A stretch of 64,000 nucleotides of DNA from an uncultured bacterium (lineage in GTDB: Bacteria > Cyanobacteriota > Vampirovibrionia > Gastranaerophilales > Gastranaerophilaceae): NCBI GenBank assembly GCA_949296355.1, contig CASFPS010000004.1, positions 1-64,000 of the forward strand, in the 5' to 3' direction. This document shows, one piece after another, positions 10,861 to 33,247 of this stretch. Position numbers and translations under genes: made by a program. The notes below the pieces were generated by a model. That model had not been told where the DNA came from. It ran no database searches and worked only from the letters and a program-made list of their open reading frames with translations. Positions within the stretch are counted from its first letter, which is position 1; every line of letters starts with the position of its first letter.

Positions 10861-11313
10861 ATGATTAAAGATAGATTAGAACATGCAGAAATTTATTATG
10901 GAATTTCAGAAAATTTAAAAAAAGGATTTGAATGGTTAAAGAATAATGATTTAACCGCTCTTCCGGATGGCAGATACAAGATTTCCGGAAATGAAATTTA
11001 TGCAAATGTTCAGAGCTATGAAACAAAGGATGACGCTTTATATGAAGCGCATAGAGAATACGCAGATATTCAGTTCATGATAAAAGGACGGGAAAAAATA
11101 GGAGTGGCAGATTATTCTGACTGTTCAGCAGCCGAAGAATATAATAAAGATAAAGACATCGAGTTTTTAAACTGTAATAAGCCGGATTCTTATGAGATTA
11201 TAGAAGAAGGGGAGTTTTTGGTACTCTTTCCTCAGGACGCGCATAAACCTTCAATAAATCCTGGTAATAAACAGAATGTAAAAAAAGCAGTAGTTAAAGT
11301 AAGATTACAATAA
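10861..11313 (+). CDS. YhcH/YjgK/YiaL family protein
   Basis: The 150-residue protein matches the YhcH/YjgK/YiaL (DUF386) family, small cupin-like beta-sandwich proteins linked to sugar metabolism and sometimes annotated as beta-galactosidase beta subunit. Seen here are the family stretches AHREYADIQFMIKGREKIG, FLVLFPQDAHKPSI and the end VKKAVVKV; the His/Glu/Asp residues in AHREYADIQ and the His in DAHKP are the usual metal-site positions. An ACAGGAGAGG site precedes the ATG. No sugar operon is adjacent, so the substrate is unknown. Confidence 0.93.
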   Translation: MIKDRLEHAEIYYGISENLKKGFEWLKNNDLTALPDGRYKISGNEIYANVQSYETKDDALYEAHREYADIQFMIKGREKIGVADYSDCSAAEEYNKDKDIEFLNCNKPDSYEIIEEGEFLVLFPQDAHKPSINPGNKQNVKKAVVKVRLQ

Positions 11314-24665: not shown

Positions 24666-25035
24666 TTATATTTTCACCACCTTTATAGCAACTATGTGTA
24701 ACACGATTTATGATATAACAAGCAAAATAGTTTTTCAAGTGGGGGGGGAAATGTATTAGGCTAAAAAGTAAAACTCTAAACAAATTGAACATCAGCGCGC
24801 ATTCCCTCTCCAACGGGGAGGGCTAGGGAGGGGGTTAAGTTAAAGAGATTCTTCGCCCCCGAACTACTGTCGGGCTCTGAATGACAGCAATCTTGTCAGT
24901 TTACTTCCCAGTTTGCCCCCATTGCAGGGGGTAAATAAATTGGGTTGGTAAGTGAGACTACAAATCTGGCGTCATTGCGGGGGAACAGGCATTCAGCCCG
25001 AAACAATCTAATGTGCGGCACTCTGTAATACTCGC
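24666..25035. repeat. Composite of intergenic repeats downstream of fliD
   Basis: This 370-base spacer is a patchwork. 24741-24776: a degenerate GGGG(T)AAATG unit. 24796-24836: CGCGCATTCCCTCTCCAACG then GGGAGGGCTAGGGAGGGGGT, as at 50213-50251. 24839-24893: the GTTAAAGAGATTC family with CGAACTACTGTCGGGCTCTG. 24926-24975: a GGGGTAAATAAATTGGG unit that runs into GGCGTCATTGCGGGGG, followed by CAGCCCGAAACAATC, that is, the CGTCATTGCG...GAAGCAATC palindrome. No gene is visible. Confidence 0.8.
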
Positions 25036-28000
25036 CTAAAATCCAAGAAAAGAACTGTATTGCTGCTGCATTTGACCGATAAGGATGTCCATGGATGAGA
25101 ATTTCTTTTCCAATCTGGCGCGGTATTTTTCTATTGCAGTATTTTCTTTACTGATTTTTTCATTTAAATTATTAATTTGTCTCTGGAAAGACTTTTCAGT
25201 GATAGCAAAATACCCTGATACAGCCTGCAGCGAGTTCTCAAGAAGAGTTTCCACCTGCGTAAAGATACCTTTGTTATCAACTCCGCCGATTAAAAGATCT
25301 TTAACAGCGTCATGCTCGGCTTCGTATGCGTCAAAGAATTTTTCTTTATCAAATGTCAGACTTATAATACTTGAATTTGATGTAGAAATATTGCTTGCGC
25401 TCGCCGCATCAACGGAGATACCGATTGCATCGAGGTTTCGGAATATTGTTGCGCCCCTGTCGGAACTTGTCATAAGGCTTCTGAGCTGGTTTCTAATCAT
25501 CTTAAGAGTTGTCTGGTTATGGAGAGCACCGTCGTTTGCTATAGCCTCGTCAACGTTTTTCATAAGTTCGTTGTAGGAATCTACGATATCGGATAGAGCT
25601 GTCGCAACACTTTCTTTGTCGTTTTCCACTGTAACTTTTACCGCAGAGCCTGCAGTTAAGCCGTTGAGGTTAAGCGTAACGCCTTTGAGCCTTGTAATAT
25701 CACTTGTAACGGTGTTTGAAGAAGCTGTATAAGTTGTCCCGTTGATTCTGAACTGGGCGTTGCTTCCGAGGGTTTGGGTTTCGATGTTCATTTTGGTGGA
25801 TTTTATTGTTCCGTCCGGATTCCATTCAGATGAGGTGAATCCCATAATGTCGGTGAAGTTGCTTGTTCCGGCTTCAATGTTAATGAGCGCCGCGCCCGAG
25901 GTTCTTGCTTCAATAACGAGTTTTCCGTCTATGCTGTCCCAGTAGGCGGTTGCGTTAGTATCTTCGTTGTTGTTAATTTGTGACACAATGTCGGCAATTG
26001 TGGTGTTACTGTTGATGTTAATAACTGCAGTTCCTATCGTGAAGGAGCCTGTTGTAACTTTTCCTGCCCTGAAGATTCCGTCAGCGGTTACGAGAGAGTC
26101 TGAGTTTACGGTATACAAAGCTCTTGCGCTTTTAGCCTGATTATCTTCTTTTATTAAACCCGTAACGGCGAGGAAGTTTGACGTGTCGGTTGTGTTACCG
26201 ACTTCTACGGAGACATCATCGTCTTTGGAGTAGAAGATTAGGTGTCCTTCTTCGAATTTCAGGTCTAAGTCGGAGTATTTTGAGGCGAGCATAGCGCGCA
26301 GGTCGCTGAACGTATCGTCTGCTTCGATGTTCAGGAGGATTTTTTGACCGTTTCTGTAGACTGAGAGAGTTCCGCCTGTAATATTAAGCGTGCCTAATTT
26401 AGTGTTCAAATCAGCGTATGAAGCGGCGGAGAAGGAGTGTTCTTCTATAATTGTGGTAGTTTCTTCAACTTTATCAGTGCTGAACATCATGCCGACGAGG
26501 TTGTTTTTAAGATTAAGTTCCAGACCGGCGTTCGGGTTTCCGAGGGAAGAGGTTGTACCGGCTGCCACAATGCTTGCTCCGCCGTAGATGTAGAGTTTAC
26601 CGTTATTAAAACTTGCAGCAATTCCGGCGGTTTCAAGTTTGTCGATTAGCGACCCGATTGTATCTGTTTCTCTTATACGTATAGTGCTAACATCTCCGTC
26701 CGGAGTTGTAATAACGAGATTACCGGCTGTTTTAAGTGTAGTTCCGCCCCAGGCGGTGTCGAATTCCGTAAGGAGTGTATCCTCTGTAGCGGTAGTGAAC
26801 GAGGTTACGGTTGTGTAAGTTTGCAGGAGCTCTTCGTAGTTGTAAGTTTTTTCGCTGTTTGCGGCAGGGAAAAGTACGTCAACAACGTTAGATGCGCCGT
26901 TAACAGAGGAGGATTTTTGGATGTAAGCATCTCCGTTTCCGGTAATCCTTATTACAGAGGAGTTTCCGTTGTTTATAATACTTGTCTGTAATCCGAAGGT
27001 TTCGAGCGTGTCGAGGAAATCACCGACAGTTTCGTCTGAGGATATGAGGGCGGTGTATTTAACGCCGTTTACCCTTATGTTGAATTCACCGCTTGTAACT
27101 CCGAGTTCGGAAAGCAGGGTGTCGCGCGTTACAGCTGAAACTGCGGTAACAGTACCCAGTACGCCGTTTGTTGCGGCTGTATTTTCGTAAGTTTTTATTG
27201 TGGTAATTGTGTAAGAGCCGTTATTTCCGATTGTTGATGTAATATTGAGCGCGGATTTAATACCGGAGGACATATTTGTAATGTATGCGTCATCGGACTG
27301 ATTGATGTAGATTTTTCCGCCGCGGACGGAGGCAGTCAAACCATATTCACCGAGCGCGCCGAGAATATCACCTACGGTATCTGAGGCTGTAACGGAGATT
27401 GTGAAGGCTTTACCGTTCTGCGCACCTGTAATTGTCTGGTTTCCGCTCATACCGAGCTGGGAGAAGAGAGTTTCTTCACTCATAAGGACAGAACTTGTTG
27501 TATATTCCGTTTTTTCGCTTACGGTTGTGGTTGTGGTCTCTGTTTTTTGTGTAGTTACGGTGTAGGTATTACCTGCGCCGATGTTTGAAGTTATACCTAA
27601 AGCCTTTTTGAGGTTAGAAGACATGCCAGTCAGGTAAGCATTTTCACTGCCGTCGATGTACAGTTTGCCGCCTCTTACAGAGGTATTGAACCCGTAGTCT
27701 TCCAATTCATTTGCAATATCCCCGACCGTGTCATTTGAAGTTACGGTCATGGTGAAGGTTCTGCCGTTGTAGACACCAACGATTGTTTCGGAATTTGATG
27801 TCATACCGAGCTGGGAGAAGAGAGTTTCTTCACTCATAAGGACATTTTGAGTTACGTTAACTGTTGTTTCTACAGGAGTTGTGACTGTAGTTTTAATTGT
27901 GCTTGTTGTGTAGGTTTTACCGCTTCCGGCAGTGAGTTTAAGGGCTGATTCAAGATTGTCAGTTATCCCCAGAATATAGTGGGAATCATCACCGCTCAGA

Positions 28001-31000
28001 GTAAGTTTTCCGCCGGAAACACTGGCTGCAATACCTGCATTGGCAAGCAGCAAAACCATATCAGAGAGGCTTGTATTGCTGTCTACAGAGATAGTTCTTG
28101 TGGTTGTTCCGTTTTGAACGGTTATGAAGTTCGAGCCGGTAACGCCGAGTGCACCGAGTTGAATATCGGTATTAGCAGAGGCAAGCGTAACTGTCTGGGT
28201 CGAACTTGTTTCCACTGTCCTTATGGTGTAGCCCTGACCTCCGCTTTCCATAAGATTCAGGGCGCTCTTGAGGTTGGTTGTCATACCTAAGATATAGTGT
28301 GTGCTGTCACCGGAGAAAGTGAATTTCCCGTTTGTGACATCGGTTGTAATGCCGACGCCTGCAAGGGCAGAAGAGAGCTGGTTTACTGTTGTAGAAGCGT
28401 CTACTGTTACTACACTTGTTGTTGAGCCGTTTTTAACTGTTATATAGTTAGTGGAGTTGACTCCGACAGAAGAGAGCGCAACATTGGAGGCGCTTGAGCT
28501 TATGTAAATTGTGGATATATAAGTGCTGCTTCCGCCCGAGCTTCCGCCTCCTCCGGAATCACCGCCCGTCGTCTGGTTCGGAATAACGGTATACCCGACT
28601 CCCGAATCCATATTCAGAGCAACCCTCAAATCTGCAGTCATACCGAGAATATAATGTGTGTCATCCCCGACAAACGTGACTTTGCCGTTAGTAATATAGG
28701 TGTTTATACCAACTTCTCGAAGCTTTTGCACTAAGTCGGTGCCATTACCAGTATTAGATATAGCTGTCAATCCATCAACCATAATAGTAGTTATAGTAGC
28801 ACCGTTCTGTACTGTTATATAATTCGTTGTAGAGACACCTATGTCTCGCAGCTCAATATGATAGTCAAAAATTAAAGTATCACCTGCATGCAACGTTCCG
28901 GCACTCAACACAACGTCATTTTTCAATGTTACTGATTCGCCAGATGTAAGTTCAACAGGTTTTGTTGTACCTTGAGGTTCGGATGAGGTGTCGCCCTCCG
29001 CAGTGCCAACCAGCTTGAGTGCGTCGGAGAGGGCGGAGGAGACAGAAAGAATAGTTGCATTGCCGCCGCCGTTGATAACGAGTATTCCGTTTTCTGCACT
29101 GACTTGAAGCCCCGCATCTGTAAGTTTTTCAAGGATAGAATCATCAGCAGAGATTACAATGTTTTGTATACCGGAAGAAGTCTGTACAACAACAGTCTGA
29201 GCACTGCACCCGTCACCCAGAAGCTCTTTAAGAGTAGTAGCACTATTCAACTGGTTATGTACTTTCAATTCCGGAAGTGCAGACGAGCCTGTATACATCC
29301 AGCCGTTTGCATCAGTAAATCCGATAGCTTCTATATAATCTGCAGTAAACATAGAGCCTTCAACACCGGTAGCGCCTAAAACGTCAGGTGAGGAGCCAGA
29401 ATAAACGACAGTATTATTAGACGAATTATAGTAAATGCCGGAAGCTATGATGCTGGAGCTACTAGCTCGACCTAGTATCGCACCGGCAAGATTGCCTTCG
29501 CTTTTTCCTAAAACTAATACATTTTGTATTGTCTTAGTGCCATAATTATCATAATCACAACCTACTAACCCGCCTGCCATTTCTCGGTACATTGAAGCAT
29601 CTGATGTTGCTGTTACATTAGCGGATGTATATGAAGATAAAATATTAAAAGACTTGTCAGTATACCCTATGAGCCCGCCGGCGTAGGCATTGGCACTAGC
29701 ATAACTGCTGGTCTGAGCGGCGGTAATACTGCCTGTTACATAGGAGTTGCTTATCTCAACCCTGTCATGAGCAGACCCGATGAGCCCGCCCGCGTAGGCA
29801 TTACTTTTGGAGGAATCGGTAGCAGAGATGGTTCCGGCGACATAGGAGTTGCTTATTTTAACATCGTAACCAGCCTGCCCGATGAGCCCGCCCGCGTAGG
29901 CATCACCGTTGGTGGAGGAATCGGTAGCAGAGATGGTTCCGGCGACATAGGAGTTGCTTATCTCAATCCCGTCAGAAATAACTCTCCCGATAAGCCCGCC
30001 GACATAGGTATCGGTTCCGGATGGAGTGTCTGAAATTGATATATTACCGGTTACATAGGAATTACTTATTTTAGTGTCACCTGCAACCCCGATTAAACCT
30101 CCGACCGCTCCGCTCGGATTGACAGTGATATTACAGCTTATACCGACGTTTCTTATCTCGGCACTTTGTGTATAGCCGAACAGACTGTTTTTGAGGTTCT
30201 TGATTACATGTCCCTGACCATCAAATATACCATTAAAACTATGACTATTAAAATTATCCTTATCTCCTATGGAAGTCCAGCTGCTGTATCCGGAAAGGTC
30301 TATATCATTAGTAAGAACAATGGTTTTTCCCTCTAATGTATTGCCGTTATTTACAACTGTTGCAAGTTGCGCCAAAGCTTCCGCGCTGCCGATACCTATT
30401 GTAGTATAGTTAGCTATTGCACCATTTAAAAGAGTTGCGTCTGTAACCGTTATCTCTGGATTTATTACTCTGTCAGAGCCAAGTGAGGTCGAGGTTTTGT
30501 TCGTTACATAAACTGCAGAGCTTGACTGCATACTGCTGTAACCTTCTGTTCCCCCGCTTTCCTCACCGCCTCCCGGAGAGGTTGTCGTAACAACTTTTGT
30601 ATAATAAACTCCGCTCGAAGATGTCATATCAACTGCTATTGTCTCGGTTGTAGAAGTCGTCACAACAGTAGAATAAGTCAATACGCCGGAGGAAGTAGTA
30701 TCGACAGCAGTTGTTGAAGTCGTGGTCAAAGTGGTTGTTGAATAAACCGTCGTCAACTCACTGACTACCGTATTATAGTCTACAGCCGAGCCTGAGGAAA
30801 TACCGGTACCCACCGTACTCGTTGATGTATGCGTCTGGGTCGTAGTTGTATAAATTGTCGTTGTCTCTTCCGTTACAGTATCATAATCTACAGCCGAGCC
30901 GGATGAGATTCCCGCACCCGAAGTCGTAGTTATCGTAGTTGTTACAACCCCGACACCAAGTTTATCCATCAAACCGCCCGAAACATAATTGCCGCTTGTA

Positions 31001-32214
31001 GAGCTTATAGATACAACGCCGTCTTCCAATCTTCCCTTAATGCCAAAATCAGAAAGACGGTCAAACAAGCTCTCAAAAGTCATACTGTCAGTTACGGTAA
31101 CGCTGCCGACCTTTACGCCCGTTTCGTCAAAAATGCTTATCTCTCCCTTGCCGTCCGGTACAAAATCAGTAATCTTATCGTACAACTGCGCGGTTCGAAT
31201 CTCTGTATAATTCAAACCGTCACTCGTCTGGGTATTATGGTTTACGGAAGTCTTAAGACCCAGAGCAGAAATCAAATTAGTCGTACCGTCGTCAGTTATC
31301 TCCGCATCGGTTATCGACAAAACACCGTCATTAAACGATGCCTCAATACCCTCACCCTGCATTGCATCTACAAATTCTTCTATAGTTGAGTTGTTCGTTA
31401 TCTGAAAACTATACTCAACACCGTTTGCCTCAATCTTTACAGTACCGTCTTTTACGCCAAGTGTACTAAGTTTAGTCTCACCGGTCGCTGTCGCAACAAT
31501 CGTATCAACCGTCGAAACTTCAAGATCACCGCTCTCATACCCGCCGGTTTCGCTTAAATTCAACGCCTCAACTATCCCCGTACCAACAGTTCCGTCATCC
31601 TGCACTGTCAAAGTATCATCTATATCATCACTGTCAAGATTTACGCTGAATATCCCGCTCGTCTCATTGTAATTAGCGCTCACACCGATATTCTGGAGTT
31701 TCTTAATTAAATCCTGTATCGTATCATCTTCCGCAAGCTCCAAAACGTGCTTCGTACCGTTCACAGTAACCCCGATTTCTCCGGCTCTTACCCCGATACT
31801 CTTTAATGAAGAATCCAATGTAGCCGTCTGGGATTCAATAATAGTCTTTGTCGTGTTTAACCCGCTTATTGCCTGAGTCTCAGTCGCAAGCTTATCAACA
31901 AACACATCATAAGTACCCTCTTCTGCCTCCGTAGTTGCCGCAGCAGTTAAAACACTCGTATCAGTCGAAGTCGCAAGCTTCTGCGCAAAAATATCCATCG
32001 TCGGAATACCAAAACTCGCATCTGTTACCTTCTCAATCATAGATTTGAACGACGAGAAAAAAGACTTAATATTGCTCAAAGTCTCCTGTAAAGATTCTAC
32101 AGAAGTTTTTTCCTCTTCATAAGTCTCAACCTTAGCTTCTCTAAGCGCAGTCAATGATTCCACCCACGATGAGGTGTCAAGTCCTGATGCTAATCCGCTG
32201 AATGATATACTCAT
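25036..32214 (-). CDS. fliD: Giant flagellar filament-capping protein FliD with IN-like repeats and a GLUG/beta-helix insert
   Basis: At 2392 residues this is several times the usual FliD (about 450-700). The start MSISFSGLASGLDTSSWVES (residues 1-110) is the FliD N-terminal domain and the end (about 2190-2392: DIVDSYNELMKNVDEAIAND to QMQQQYSSFLGF) is the FliD C-terminal domain with its terminal coiled coil, so both cap-forming ends are intact. Between them lie many copies of a flagellin-IN-like module (strand, DTIxDLxxxLxxxGI, GxLxIxG, LGM/L). About 415-580 is Thr/Ser-rich; about 605-985 is a GLUG-type beta-helix (EALAQLATVVNNG, LTNDIDLSGYSSW, then 34-residue repeats such as YAGGLIG...ISNSYVAG). 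A Gly/Ser linker is near 1215. Codons are richer in G+C than in neighbours. AAAAAGGA precedes the ATG. It likely caps the filament and may be an adhesin. Confidence 0.93.
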   Translation of the reverse strand: MSISFSGLASGLDTSSWVESLTALREAKVETYEEEKTSVESLQETLSNIKSFFSSFKSMIEKVTDASFGIPTMDIFAQKLATSTDTSVLTAAATTEAEEGTYDVFVDKLATETQAISGLNTTKTIIESQTATLDSSLKSIGVRAGEIGVTVNGTKHVLELAEDDTIQDLIKKLQNIGVSANYNETSGIFSVNLDSDDIDDTLTVQDDGTVGTGIVEALNLSETGGYESGDLEVSTVDTIVATATGETKLSTLGVKDGTVKIEANGVEYSFQITNNSTIEEFVDAMQGEGIEASFNDGVLSITDAEITDDGTTNLISALGLKTSVNHNTQTSDGLNYTEIRTAQLYDKITDFVPDGKGEISIFDETGVKVGSVTVTDSMTFESLFDRLSDFGIKGRLEDGVVSISSTSGNYVSGGLMDKLGVGVVTTTITTTSGAGISSGSAVDYDTVTEETTTIYTTTTQTHTSTSTVGTGISSGSAVDYNTVVSELTTVYSTTTLTTTSTTAVDTTSSGVLTYSTVVTTSTTETIAVDMTSSSGVYYTKVVTTTSPGGGEESGGTEGYSSMQSSSAVYVTNKTSTSLGSDRVINPEITVTDATLLNGAIANYTTIGIGSAEALAQLATVVNNGNTLEGKTIVLTNDIDLSGYSSWTSIGDKDNFNSHSFNGIFDGQGHVIKNLKNSLFGYTQSAEIRNVGISCNITVNPSGAVGGLIGVAGDTKISNSYVTGNISISDTPSGTDTYVGGLIGRVISDGIEISNSYVAGTISATDSSTNGDAYAGGLIGQAGYDVKISNSYVAGTISATDSSKSNAYAGGLIGSAHDRVEISNSYVTGSITAAQTSSYASANAYAGGLIGYTDKSFNILSSYTSANVTATSDASMYREMAGGLVGCDYDNYGTKTIQNVLVLGKSEGNLAGAILGRASSSSIIASGIYYNSSNNTVVYSGSSPDVLGATGVEGSMFTADYIEAIGFTDANGWMYTGSSALPELKVHNQLNSATTLKELLGDGCSAQTVVVQTSSGIQNIVISADDSILEKLTDAGLQVSAENGILVINGGGNATILSVSSALSDALKLVGTAEGDTSSEPQGTTKPVELTSGESVTLKNDVVLSAGTLHAGDTLIFDYHIELRDIGVSTTNYITVQNGATITTIMVDGLTAISNTGNGTDLVQKLREVGINTYITNGKVTFVGDDTHYILGMTADLRVALNMDSGVGYTVIPNQTTGGDSGGGGSSGGSSTYISTIYISSSASNVALSSVGVNSTNYITVKNGSTTSVVTVDASTTVNQLSSALAGVGITTDVTNGKFTFSGDSTHYILGMTTNLKSALNLMESGGQGYTIRTVETSSTQTVTLASANTDIQLGALGVTGSNFITVQNGTTTRTISVDSNTSLSDMVLLLANAGIAASVSGGKLTLSGDDSHYILGITDNLESALKLTAGSGKTYTTSTIKTTVTTPVETTVNVTQNVLMSEETLFSQLGMTSNSETIVGVYNGRTFTMTVTSNDTVGDIANELEDYGFNTSVRGGKLYIDGSENAYLTGMSSNLKKALGITSNIGAGNTYTVTTQKTETTTTTVSEKTEYTTSSVLMSEETLFSQLGMSGNQTITGAQNGKAFTISVTASDTVGDILGALGEYGLTASVRGGKIYINQSDDAYITNMSSGIKSALNITSTIGNNGSYTITTIKTYENTAATNGVLGTVTAVSAVTRDTLLSELGVTSGEFNIRVNGVKYTALISSDETVGDFLDTLETFGLQTSIINNGNSSVIRITGNGDAYIQKSSSVNGASNVVDVLFPAANSEKTYNYEELLQTYTTVTSFTTATEDTLLTEFDTAWGGTTLKTAGNLVITTPDGDVSTIRIRETDTIGSLIDKLETAGIAASFNNGKLYIYGGASIVAAGTTSSLGNPNAGLELNLKNNLVGMMFSTDKVEETTTIIEEHSFSAASYADLNTKLGTLNITGGTLSVYRNGQKILLNIEADDTFSDLRAMLASKYSDLDLKFEEGHLIFYSKDDDVSVEVGNTTDTSNFLAVTGLIKEDNQAKSARALYTVNSDSLVTADGIFRAGKVTTGSFTIGTAVININSNTTIADIVSQINNNEDTNATAYWDSIDGKLVIEARTSGAALINIEAGTSNFTDIMGFTSSEWNPDGTIKSTKMNIETQTLGSNAQFRINGTTYTASSNTVTSDITRLKGVTLNLNGLTAGSAVKVTVENDKESVATALSDIVDSYNELMKNVDEAIANDGALHNQTTLKMIRNQLRSLMTSSDRGATIFRNLDAIGISVDAASASNISTSNSSIISLTFDKEKFFDAYEAEHDAVKDLLIGGVDNKGIFTQVETLLENSLQAVSGYFAITEKSFQRQINNLNEKISKENTAIEKYRARLEKKFSSMDILIGQMQQQYSSFLGF
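27448..27844 (-). repeat. In-frame DNA repeats inside fliD (IN module duplication)
   Basis: The 43-base word starting CATACCGAGCTGGGAGAAGA occurs at 27448-27490 and again at 27802-27844, 354 bases (118 codons) apart, encoding LMSEETLFSQLGM in both places. The spacing equals one module, so this is a recent in-frame duplication. Other near-copies of 34 codons lie at 29782-29858 and 29884-29961 in the GLUG part. Confidence 0.85.
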
Positions 32215-32958
32215 GTTTCGGTTCCTTTTTGGGGTTACTGTTGTTGTTTTTTGTGGATTCCCTCGCCCCTTGCCGGCGCCCGATTTGTAGTTATACGTCC
32301 GGTTGGGATATATTTACCCCGGGAGAGGGAGCAGTTGTTCTTGAGCCGAAAAGCGAAAGTTACGAATGCGGGAGAGGGGCTGATATCCCCTGTAGAGTTT
32401 CCCTCGCCCCTTGCCGGCGCCCGATTTGTAGCTATACGTCCGGTTGGGATATATTTACCCCGGGAGAGGGGCTGATTTTCAGTTAATGTTGGGTTAGTAA
32501 ACCCAACCTACATTTATCTGGAAAGGTTAGCGCGATTATCGGGTTTGTCATGTTTCACCCCCCTTCGACCTTCGGTCACTTCCCCCGCAAGGGGGGCAGA
32601 TGCGCCGGCGCTCGTTTGATGTAACACGGGTTGACCGACCTTGCGCCGTTCCTTCCCTGGAGGGAAGGTTAGGATGGGTGCTAATTTTAAAGTTTATCAC
32701 CCTCTCCTTATCTCCCTCTTTTAGGGAGAGAGACGCTCCGGCGCTCAACTGTCGCGCCCGTAGCGGCAAACCGATTACGGCGGTGTATAAATTGTCTTCT
32801 TATTCTGCATATCTATATCCTTATGGGGTAACTAATTTTGAAAGGAAAGGTACCGGTTCCCCGATACCCGCTCCTTACATAAAGAACGAATAATTCCGGA
32901 GCTTTTGTTGTCTTATCAAGTAAATAAGCTCTTTTTAGGAATTCTTTTTCTTATTCGC

Positions 32959-32983
32959 GTAACATTTTTGTATAAAATGTTAC
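32959..32983. promoter_or_regulatory. Palindrome GTAACATTTT-N5-AAAATGTTAC (site 1)
   Basis: Perfect ten-base arms around five bases. A second site lies at 33123-33146 and both are preceded by TTCGC. They flank an AT-rich 140-base stretch upstream of the small plus-strand gene at 33248. An operator for a dimeric regulator or a Xer-like recombination site are both possible; nothing in the window decides. Confidence 0.45.
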
Positions 32984-33122
32984 ACACATCCAATAATTTT
33001 AAAAGACTTCCATTTAGTATTATAGCATATTTCAGAAATTTGTGAACCCCCTGAGTTAAAAATTCAAAAAAAATATAAAAAAATAAATCCTTTATTCATG
33101 CATATTTGAAACCAAATTTCGC

Positions 33123-33146
33123 GTAACATTTTATACAAAATGTTAT
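33123..33146. promoter_or_regulatory. Palindrome GTAACATTTT-N4-AAAATGTTAT (site 2)
   Basis: Second copy of the palindrome at 32959, with nine of ten arm pairs perfect and the centre ATAC. The core AACATTTTATACAAAATGTT resembles the outline of a dif site (arms around TATACA), but arms do not match known dif closely. It is about 50 bases upstream of the -35 at 33196. Confidence 0.45.
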
Positions 33147-33195
33147 GCTTTTAGTTTTTATGAGGGTTTCAGGGGTAAATTTTGATAAATCAGTA

Positions 33196-33224
33196 TTGAC
33201 AGCCATCTTACTTAATGCTAAAGT
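33196..33224 (+). promoter_or_regulatory. Sigma-70-type promoter of the small gene at 33248
   Basis: TTGACA at 33196-33201, a 17-base spacer and TAAAGT at 33219-33224. The transcript would start about 33231, just before the ATG at 33248. Confidence 0.5.
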
Positions 33225-33247
33225 TAAGTGTCTTGGAATTAAGAATT

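What the first reader, a model, noticed from the sequence alone, without database searches (positions are those of the whole stretch)
25036..32214. Giant FliD filament cap of 2392 residues
Seen: FliD-type N-terminus (SGLASGLDTSSWVES) and FliD-type C-terminal domain with terminal coiled coil frame a single uninterrupted gene of 7.2 kb. Known: FliD caps are usually 450-700 residues and form a ring at the filament tip. Inference: repeated IN-like modules extend the variable outer region into a long stalk, making the cap a large surface organelle part, probably an adhesin.
Basis: partly seen in the sequence, partly recalled or inferred. Interest (0 to 1): 0.78.

Follow-up and report, generated by a model that had tools for sequence, protein, structure and literature searches.

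The report
Giant flagellar-tip cap protein, second copy
Gut bacteria of the order Gastranaerophilales carry, beside their ordinary flagellar cap protein FliD, an ancient second version 3 to 8 times longer whose two ends are conserved while its long modular middle can be completely different between near-identical genomes, which suggests (but does not prove) a variable sticky tip on the flagellum.

Summary
In detail: 25036-32214, on the MINUS strand, is one open frame of 2392 aa with FliD_N (10-112) and FliD_C (2150-2384) at its ends. E. coli FliD aligns collinearly to both. Between them lie 13 beta-grasp "IN/FliD-head" modules (normal FliD here: 2), a Thr/Ser-rich stretch and a GLUG block. It is not the only fliD: a normal 578-aa fliD lies on another contig, and a third locus holds a broken giant. 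All 16 genomes found with such giants also carry a normal FliD. Sizes are bimodal (577-590 vs 1557-4700 aa in one set; up to 6589 elsewhere). All giants form one clade beside the normal FliDs of three genera: one old duplication. Intact orthologues are under purifying selection. The gene sits in an 8.5-kb segment absent from the same site in two relatives. Against a genome 97-98% identical in flanking DNA, both ends of a second giant match 92-96% (nt) while the central 4.7 kb is unrelated. A normal FliD elsewhere is confirmed; loss of cap helices is not. Best reading: an export-competent accessory cap subunit carrying a swappable adhesive head. Cap assembly and adhesion are inferred, not shown. 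New variant of a known kind.

The parts
25036..32214 (-). giant fliD gene, 2392 aa
31879..32187 (-). FliD_N (aa 10-112), leg N-terminal helices
   Evidence: Pfam E 9.8e-16; aligns with E. coli FliD 3-128
31555..31806 (-). module m1 (aa 137-220)
   Evidence: own HMM; beta-grasp in AF2 model, pLDDT about 80
31255..31470 (-). module m2 (aa 249-320)
30952..31152 (-). module m3 (aa 355-421)
30415..30951 (-). Thr/Ser-rich stretch (aa 422-600)
   Evidence: sequence
29245..30267 (-). GLUG-motif block (about aa 650-990), inside the part that differs most from the near-clonal orthologue L119
   Evidence: Pfam Glug 1.9e-12, 4 stretches; six GLxG motifs at 706-882; residues 600-1200 41-69% identical to L119 against 85-100% elsewhere
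26872..29220 (-). modules m4-m10 (aa 999-1781), about 115-aa period; m5-m7 and m8-m9 recent tandem duplicates
   Evidence: AF2 pLDDT about 80-90 for m6-m10
27447..27844 (-). 44-bp exact direct repeats (27447-27490, 27801-27844) at equivalent points at the start of m8 and m9
   Evidence: D6
25837..26733 (-). modules m11-m13 (aa 1828-2126); m12 and m13 correspond to the two head modules n1, n2 of normal FliD
   Evidence: m13-n2 57%, m12-n1 39% identity
25063..25767 (-). FliD_C (aa 2150-2384)
   Evidence: Pfam 1.6e-36; profile vs PDB FliD E 2e-33; Foldseek prob 1.00
25042..25212 (-). C-terminal 57-residue helix (aa 2335-2391)
   Evidence: AF2
24744..33232 (.). 8.5-kb segment absent at this site in G108 and G335 (flanks contiguous there)
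32215..32986 (-). upstream region with 72-bp direct repeats, about 80-95% conserved in front of giants in L119 and L121
32957..33148 (.). pair of inverted GTAACATTTT/AAAATGTTAC elements, also upstream of giants L119, L120, L121; role unknown

Best explanation
This gene encodes an accessory, giant paralogue of the flagellar filament cap protein FliD. Shown by computation: it arose by one duplication older than three genera of Gastranaerophilales; it kept both FliD leg halves and the ancestral head modules; the head was enlarged by repeated duplication of a beta-grasp IN/D2-D3-like module plus inserted cassettes (here GLUG); intact orthologues are under purifying selection; the gene is gained, lost and relocated between near relatives; and its centre can be replaced while the ends stay nearly identical. 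Inferred: it is exported unfolded by the flagellar type III system using the FliD N-terminus, joins the cap at the filament tip (alone or mixed with normal FliD), and displays a loop of modules with a variable centre that binds surfaces, mucus, feed particles or partner microbes; variation helps it change target or escape recognition.
For: FliD_N and FliD_C intact, collinear with E. coli FliD; intact C-terminal helix and folded modules, fold matches to FliD caps Z 10-14 and a stalk module to Salmonella FliD D2-D3 Z 7.5, rmsd 2.8. One clade of 25 giants, support 100/99, beside the 18 normal FliDs of the same genera. All 16 genomes with such giants also have a normal FliD. dN/dS 0.02-0.13 along closer pairs. 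FlhA present in all 12 genus members. Constant ends and replaced middle: ends 97-100% aa, aa 500-1700 at 19-33% vs L121, with 98.3% identity in L121's flank. Literature: the FliD head lies between D1 helices and can be removed or replaced without loss of filament formation (PMC8533109); FliD binds mucus or partner cells in some species (PMC4009794).
Against: No expression, localisation or binding data. The giant's leg is only about 40% identical to the normal leg, so mixed rings are uncertain. Export of a protein this long through the flagellar channel is not shown. Relaxed constraint could also give fast-changing middles, although low dN/dS in closer pairs argues against it. 3 of 12 genus members lack a giant, so it is dispensable.
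Confidence: 0.66

Rival explanations
1. Alternative dedicated cap: the giant homo-oligomer caps a separate class of filament built from some of the several flagellins, with the size serving structure (tip sheath, drag, filament protection) rather than adhesion.
For: Six strong flagellin loci plus a weaker FlgL-like hit in the genome; two FlhA paralogues per genome in most of the genus; leg diverged from the normal one.
Against: The second FlhA also occurs in genomes without a giant (G059, G128, G359); a structural role does not need a middle that is swapped between near-identical genomes.
Confidence: 0.2
2. FliD-derived secreted adhesin: uses FliD ends only for export through the flagellar channel and then acts free or attached to filaments or cells, not as a cap.
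For: Long repetitive adhesin-like middle, Thr/Ser-rich stretch and GLUG block; a normal FliD is always present.
Against: Both leg halves are the best conserved part across giants, more than an export signal would need; long C-terminal helix intact.
Confidence: 0.2
3. Selfish or decaying repeat expansion without function: mobile gene copies that grow by module duplication and erode.
For: Broken copy at G000:C15 with lost N-terminus and an in-frame TAA; insertion polymorphism; 329-aa remnant in G111.
Against: 28 complete frames of 1557-4700 aa; dN/dS 0.02-0.13 along the whole length in closer pairs; near-identical module layout in three species (G063b, G029a, G090b).
Confidence: 0.06
4. Assembly or annotation artefact.
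For: Repeats can mis-assemble; one relative (G024) has an N gap inside its giant.
Against: Many MAGs give the same kind of gene; constrained codons.
Confidence: 0.01

Closest known systems
FliD (HAP2), flagellar filament cap (Salmonella 9gnz, E. coli 5h5v, C. jejuni 6sih/9gsx, H. pylori 6iwy)
   Same: FliD_N, head of IN/D2-D3-like modules, FliD_C, terminal helix, in the same order
   Different: 13 modules instead of 2 plus Thr/Ser-rich and GLUG blocks; 2392 aa; second copy beside a normal FliD; mobile and mosaic
FliD with extra head domains (D4 in C. jejuni, larger H. pylori head; PMC7316729, PMC8533109)
   Same: Insertion of extra globular domains into FliD
   Different: One extra domain or so against a dozen or more; C. 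jejuni D4 lies within the D1 helix bundle; not described there as a second FliD
Giant flagellins (>1000 aa; PMC6248924) and flagellinolysin (PMC7643111)
   Same: Conserved flagellar ends with an enlarged or functional hypervariable centre
   Different: Filament subunits, not caps; no Flagellin_N/C in this protein
GLUG-motif / M26 IgA1-peptidase N-region surface proteins
   Same: GLUG motif here; M26_N hits in giants L128 and L141
   Different: Here a cassette in a FliD head; no peptidase domain found in the scans

Membership tests
FliD filament cap family | FliD_N (PF02465) at the N-terminus | tested here: met
   58.6 bits, cut-off 24.8, aa 10-112
FliD filament cap family | FliD_C (PF07195) at the C-terminus, full length | tested here: met
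   126.4 bits, profile 1-236/236
FliD filament cap family | Head (D2-D3) between the two leg halves, homologous to known FliD | tested here: met
   m12/m13 match n1/n2 of normal FliD; model 737-1151 vs 5h5v Z 13.9
FliD filament cap family | Long terminal helix of the leg | tested here: met
   Helix aa 2335-2391 predicted; N-terminal helix 15-65 predicted at low confidence
FliD filament cap family | Phylogenetic placement with FliDs | tested here: met
   Giant clade beside the normal FliDs of the same three genera
FliD filament cap family | Passes NCBIfam FliD equivalog cut-offs | tested here: inconclusive
   92.9 bits vs 387; but the genome's normal FliD also fails (128.6 vs 469)
FliD filament cap family | Assembles as a ring at the filament tip and supports flagellin polymerisation | not testable with these tools
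   needs experiment
FliD filament cap family | Export through the flagellar type III system | not testable with these tools
   FliD-like N-terminus, no evident Sec signal in the sequence; FlhA present in the genome
Flagellin / giant flagellin | Flagellin_N and Flagellin_C | tested here: not met
   no such match in the Pfam scan
GLUG / M26-type surface proteins | GLUG repeats | tested here: met
   Glug 47.2 bits, cut-off 20.5, 4 stretches
GLUG / M26-type surface proteins | Peptidase domain | tested here: not met
   no peptidase domain in the Pfam scan of the window protein

The most novel reading that the evidence does not exclude
A flagellar-tip variable-receptor system: a mobile promoter-plus-giant-fliD unit whose conserved ends dock it in the cap while its central cassette is exchanged by recombination or gene conversion between copies and strains, giving a gut commensal a diversifying adhesin or antigen at the tip of its flagellum.
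Probability: 0.4. Interest if true: 0.86.

Novelty: new variant of a known kind. Interest (0 to 1): 0.77.

Why it matters
FliD is usually treated as a compact capping chaperone. Here a FliD-type protein is 4 times (in relatives up to 8-11 times) its normal size. If it caps, it tests how large a load the cap and the narrow export channel can take, and links motility to adhesion in a poorly known gut lineage (non-photosynthetic Cyanobacteria relatives). The swapped middle makes a testable case of variation at the flagellar tip. In the open-access library searched no paper describes giant FliDs; that is not proof of absence, and phyla other than the window's own were not scanned.

Tried and rejected
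AF2 of residues 1-1200: only the first three modules fold with confidence; the Thr/Ser and GLUG part does not, so its solenoid shape stays a guess. Sequence search of the GLUG region against PDB: nothing. Shared sigma-28-type promoter of giants and flagellins: one match at a flagellin and one weak one at a giant, not pursued. Spurious Pfam names on modules (ubiquitin, CBS, OTU1_UBXL, RL10P_insert) were discounted: few or no stretches passing on their own, repeated short beta-grasp-like matches. Link of giants to the second FlhA: rejected, since giant-free genomes also have it. A clean empty site for L121's giant in G000 could not be shown because L121's contig ends just past the gene.

Full report
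What is there. The frame at 25036-32214 is on the minus strand: 2392 aa, ATG start, one stop. Pfam finds FliD_N at 10-112 (9.8e-16), FliD_C at 2150-2384 (1.6e-36), four GLUG motif stretches and a weak Flagellin_IN match. E. coli FliD aligns to both ends in order, 3-128 and 216-447. A profile built from the protein's own repeats finds 13 modules with a start-to-start spacing near 115 aa; normal FliDs of the same group have 2 as a rule.

Not the only fliD. The own genome (2.09 Mb, 99% complete) has three FliD_C loci. G000:C3 is a normal FliD (578 aa from its MTISFSG start). G000:C15 is a broken giant: its N-terminus is gone and the frame is split by an in-frame TAA. By synteny and by the tree it corresponds to the intact 2481-aa giant of G335. 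All 16 genomes found with giants of this clade also have a normal FliD; in G135 that copy runs off a contig end.

How widespread. In 146 genomes of the family and 386 of the phylum, giants occur only in the window's own family; FliDs elsewhere in the phylum have open frames of 504-799 aa, apart from fragments. In the window's genus 9 of 12 genomes have at least one. Record titles of matching public contigs name Candidatus Gastranaerophilales / Melainabacteria, with gut and rumen sources among them. Sizes in that set are bimodal: 27 complete normals (577-590 aa) and 28 complete giants (1557-4700 aa), nothing between. G040 and G117 reach 6589 and 6017 aa.

Origin. A tree of the two conserved ends puts all 25 giants, from three genera, in one clade (100/99), beside the 18 normal FliDs of those same genera. 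So one duplication preceded the genera. The window gene is nearest to G335b (94/97).

Constraint. G063b and G029a (2400 and 2402 aa) are 87% identical with dN/dS 0.02, 0.06 and 0.05 for N-terminus, middle and C-terminus; other closer pairs give up to 0.13 (G063b/G090b, G063a/G090a), and G086/G315 up to 0.19; dS is high, so these ratios are rough. Three species share nearly the same layout of 19 modules.

Architecture and growth. The two C-terminal modules m12 and m13 match the two head modules of normal FliD (39% and 57%). m1, m10, m12 and m13 have clear partners in G335b (51-64%). m5-m7 and m8-m9 are more like each other (49-59%) than like anything in G335b, so the centre grows by local duplication. 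An exact 44-bp repeat lies at equivalent points at the start of m8 and m9. AF2 of residues 1193-2392 (38 sequences) has mean pLDDT 73.8; modules are beta-beta-alpha-beta-beta domains at about 80-95, and the last 57 residues form one helix. The model matches solved FliD caps (Foldseek probability 1.00; Z 10-14); the first module in the model matches Salmonella FliD D2-D3 (Z 7.5, rmsd 2.8). Relative domain placement is not reliable (pTM 0.35).

Mobility. In G108 and G335 the window's flanks up to 24743 and from 33233 are contiguous; the 8.5 kb between, holding little but the giant and its upstream region, is absent. Upstream sequence of 0.5-0.8 kb, about 80-95% identical, precedes the giants in L119 and L121.

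Swapped middle. One MAG (bin4; L119, L121, L183) is 97-98% identical to the window's genome in flanking DNA. Its giant L119 is 85-100% identical to the window's over most of the aligned length but 41-69% at residues 600-1200, which holds the GLUG region. Its other giant L121 has the first 200 residues at 99-100% and residues from about 1900 on at 97-99%, while 500-1700 show 19-33%; at DNA level the homologous blocks end at window 31526 and 26812, with no match between. Across 44 giants, pairs with similar N-termini regularly have far less similar middles. This is what cassette exchange or gene conversion of the ends would leave; which of the two is not resolved, and part of the contrast reflects faster evolution of the middle.

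How it probably works. Shown: FliD ends, modular head, constraint, mobility, mosaic structure. Inferred: export by the flagellar system (FlhA present), docking in the cap, a loop of modules held at both ends by the leg, and a variable centre facing outward. Precedents: the FliD head of P. aeruginosa can be removed or exchanged without loss of flagella (PMC8533109); FliD has been reported to bind mucus or partner cells in some species, with conflicting results in others (PMC4009794). Flagella genes are known in some Gastranaerophilales (PMC4040986, PMC5877343).

A second, more distant set. In four genomes of another genus (G033, G064, G092, G112) and in G137 and G274, FliD-like frames of 3012-11051 aa occur, with 18-48 modules, a C-terminus scoring 29.7 bits for FliD_C in the one tested, and an N-terminus related to FliD by profile comparison (probability 96.7, E 4.6e-10). 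Giant size may have arisen twice.

Limits. Metagenome-assembled genomes for the most part; no expression or localisation data; other phyla not surveyed; the novelty statement rests on an open-access library.

Noticed in passing
L064 2501 (-) joined with L065 to 35656; also L066/L067, L068/L069, L062/L063, L071, L072, L073, L059, L108: Second, divergent group of FliD-like giants, up to 11051 aa (33-kb frame, 48 IN modules). In G033, G064 and G112 a 3012-11051 aa gene lies head to head with another FliD-like giant (3980-3981 aa in G033 and G112; running off the fetched stretch in G064).
   Followed up: partly
G000:C4:88679-90670 and G000:C30:11913-13889; also L004 3615-5087: Two full FlhA paralogues per genome in most of the genus, plus a 490-aa protein matching only the FlhA C-terminal part. 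Not tied to presence of the giant.
   Followed up: no
L005 upstream of 11411; same in L060, L079, L080, L097: Normal fliD genes share a conserved TTGAAA-spacer-TATAAT-like promoter; giants do not share it.
   Followed up: no
upstream of giants in L047-L051 and of flagellin L011: Leader with TTCAAGGACGCTTGGACG (giants) and GCAAGGACGC (flagellin), resembling CsrA-type sites.
   Followed up: no
L046 9902-10891: 329-aa gene with only the two giant-type FliD ends and no modules: real internal deletion or assembly collapse.
   Followed up: no
L103 3566-16509: Two giant fliDs in tandem (1302 aa and at least 3004 aa) in G414.
   Followed up: no
window 11310-35533 versus L119: The segment with the giant is inverted and joined at 11310 in the near-clonal MAG: a rearrangement-prone region.
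   Followed up: partly
window 32258-32329 and 32399-32470: 72-bp direct repeats (99% identical) just upstream of the giant; same sequence upstream of giants in L119 and L121.
   Followed up: partly
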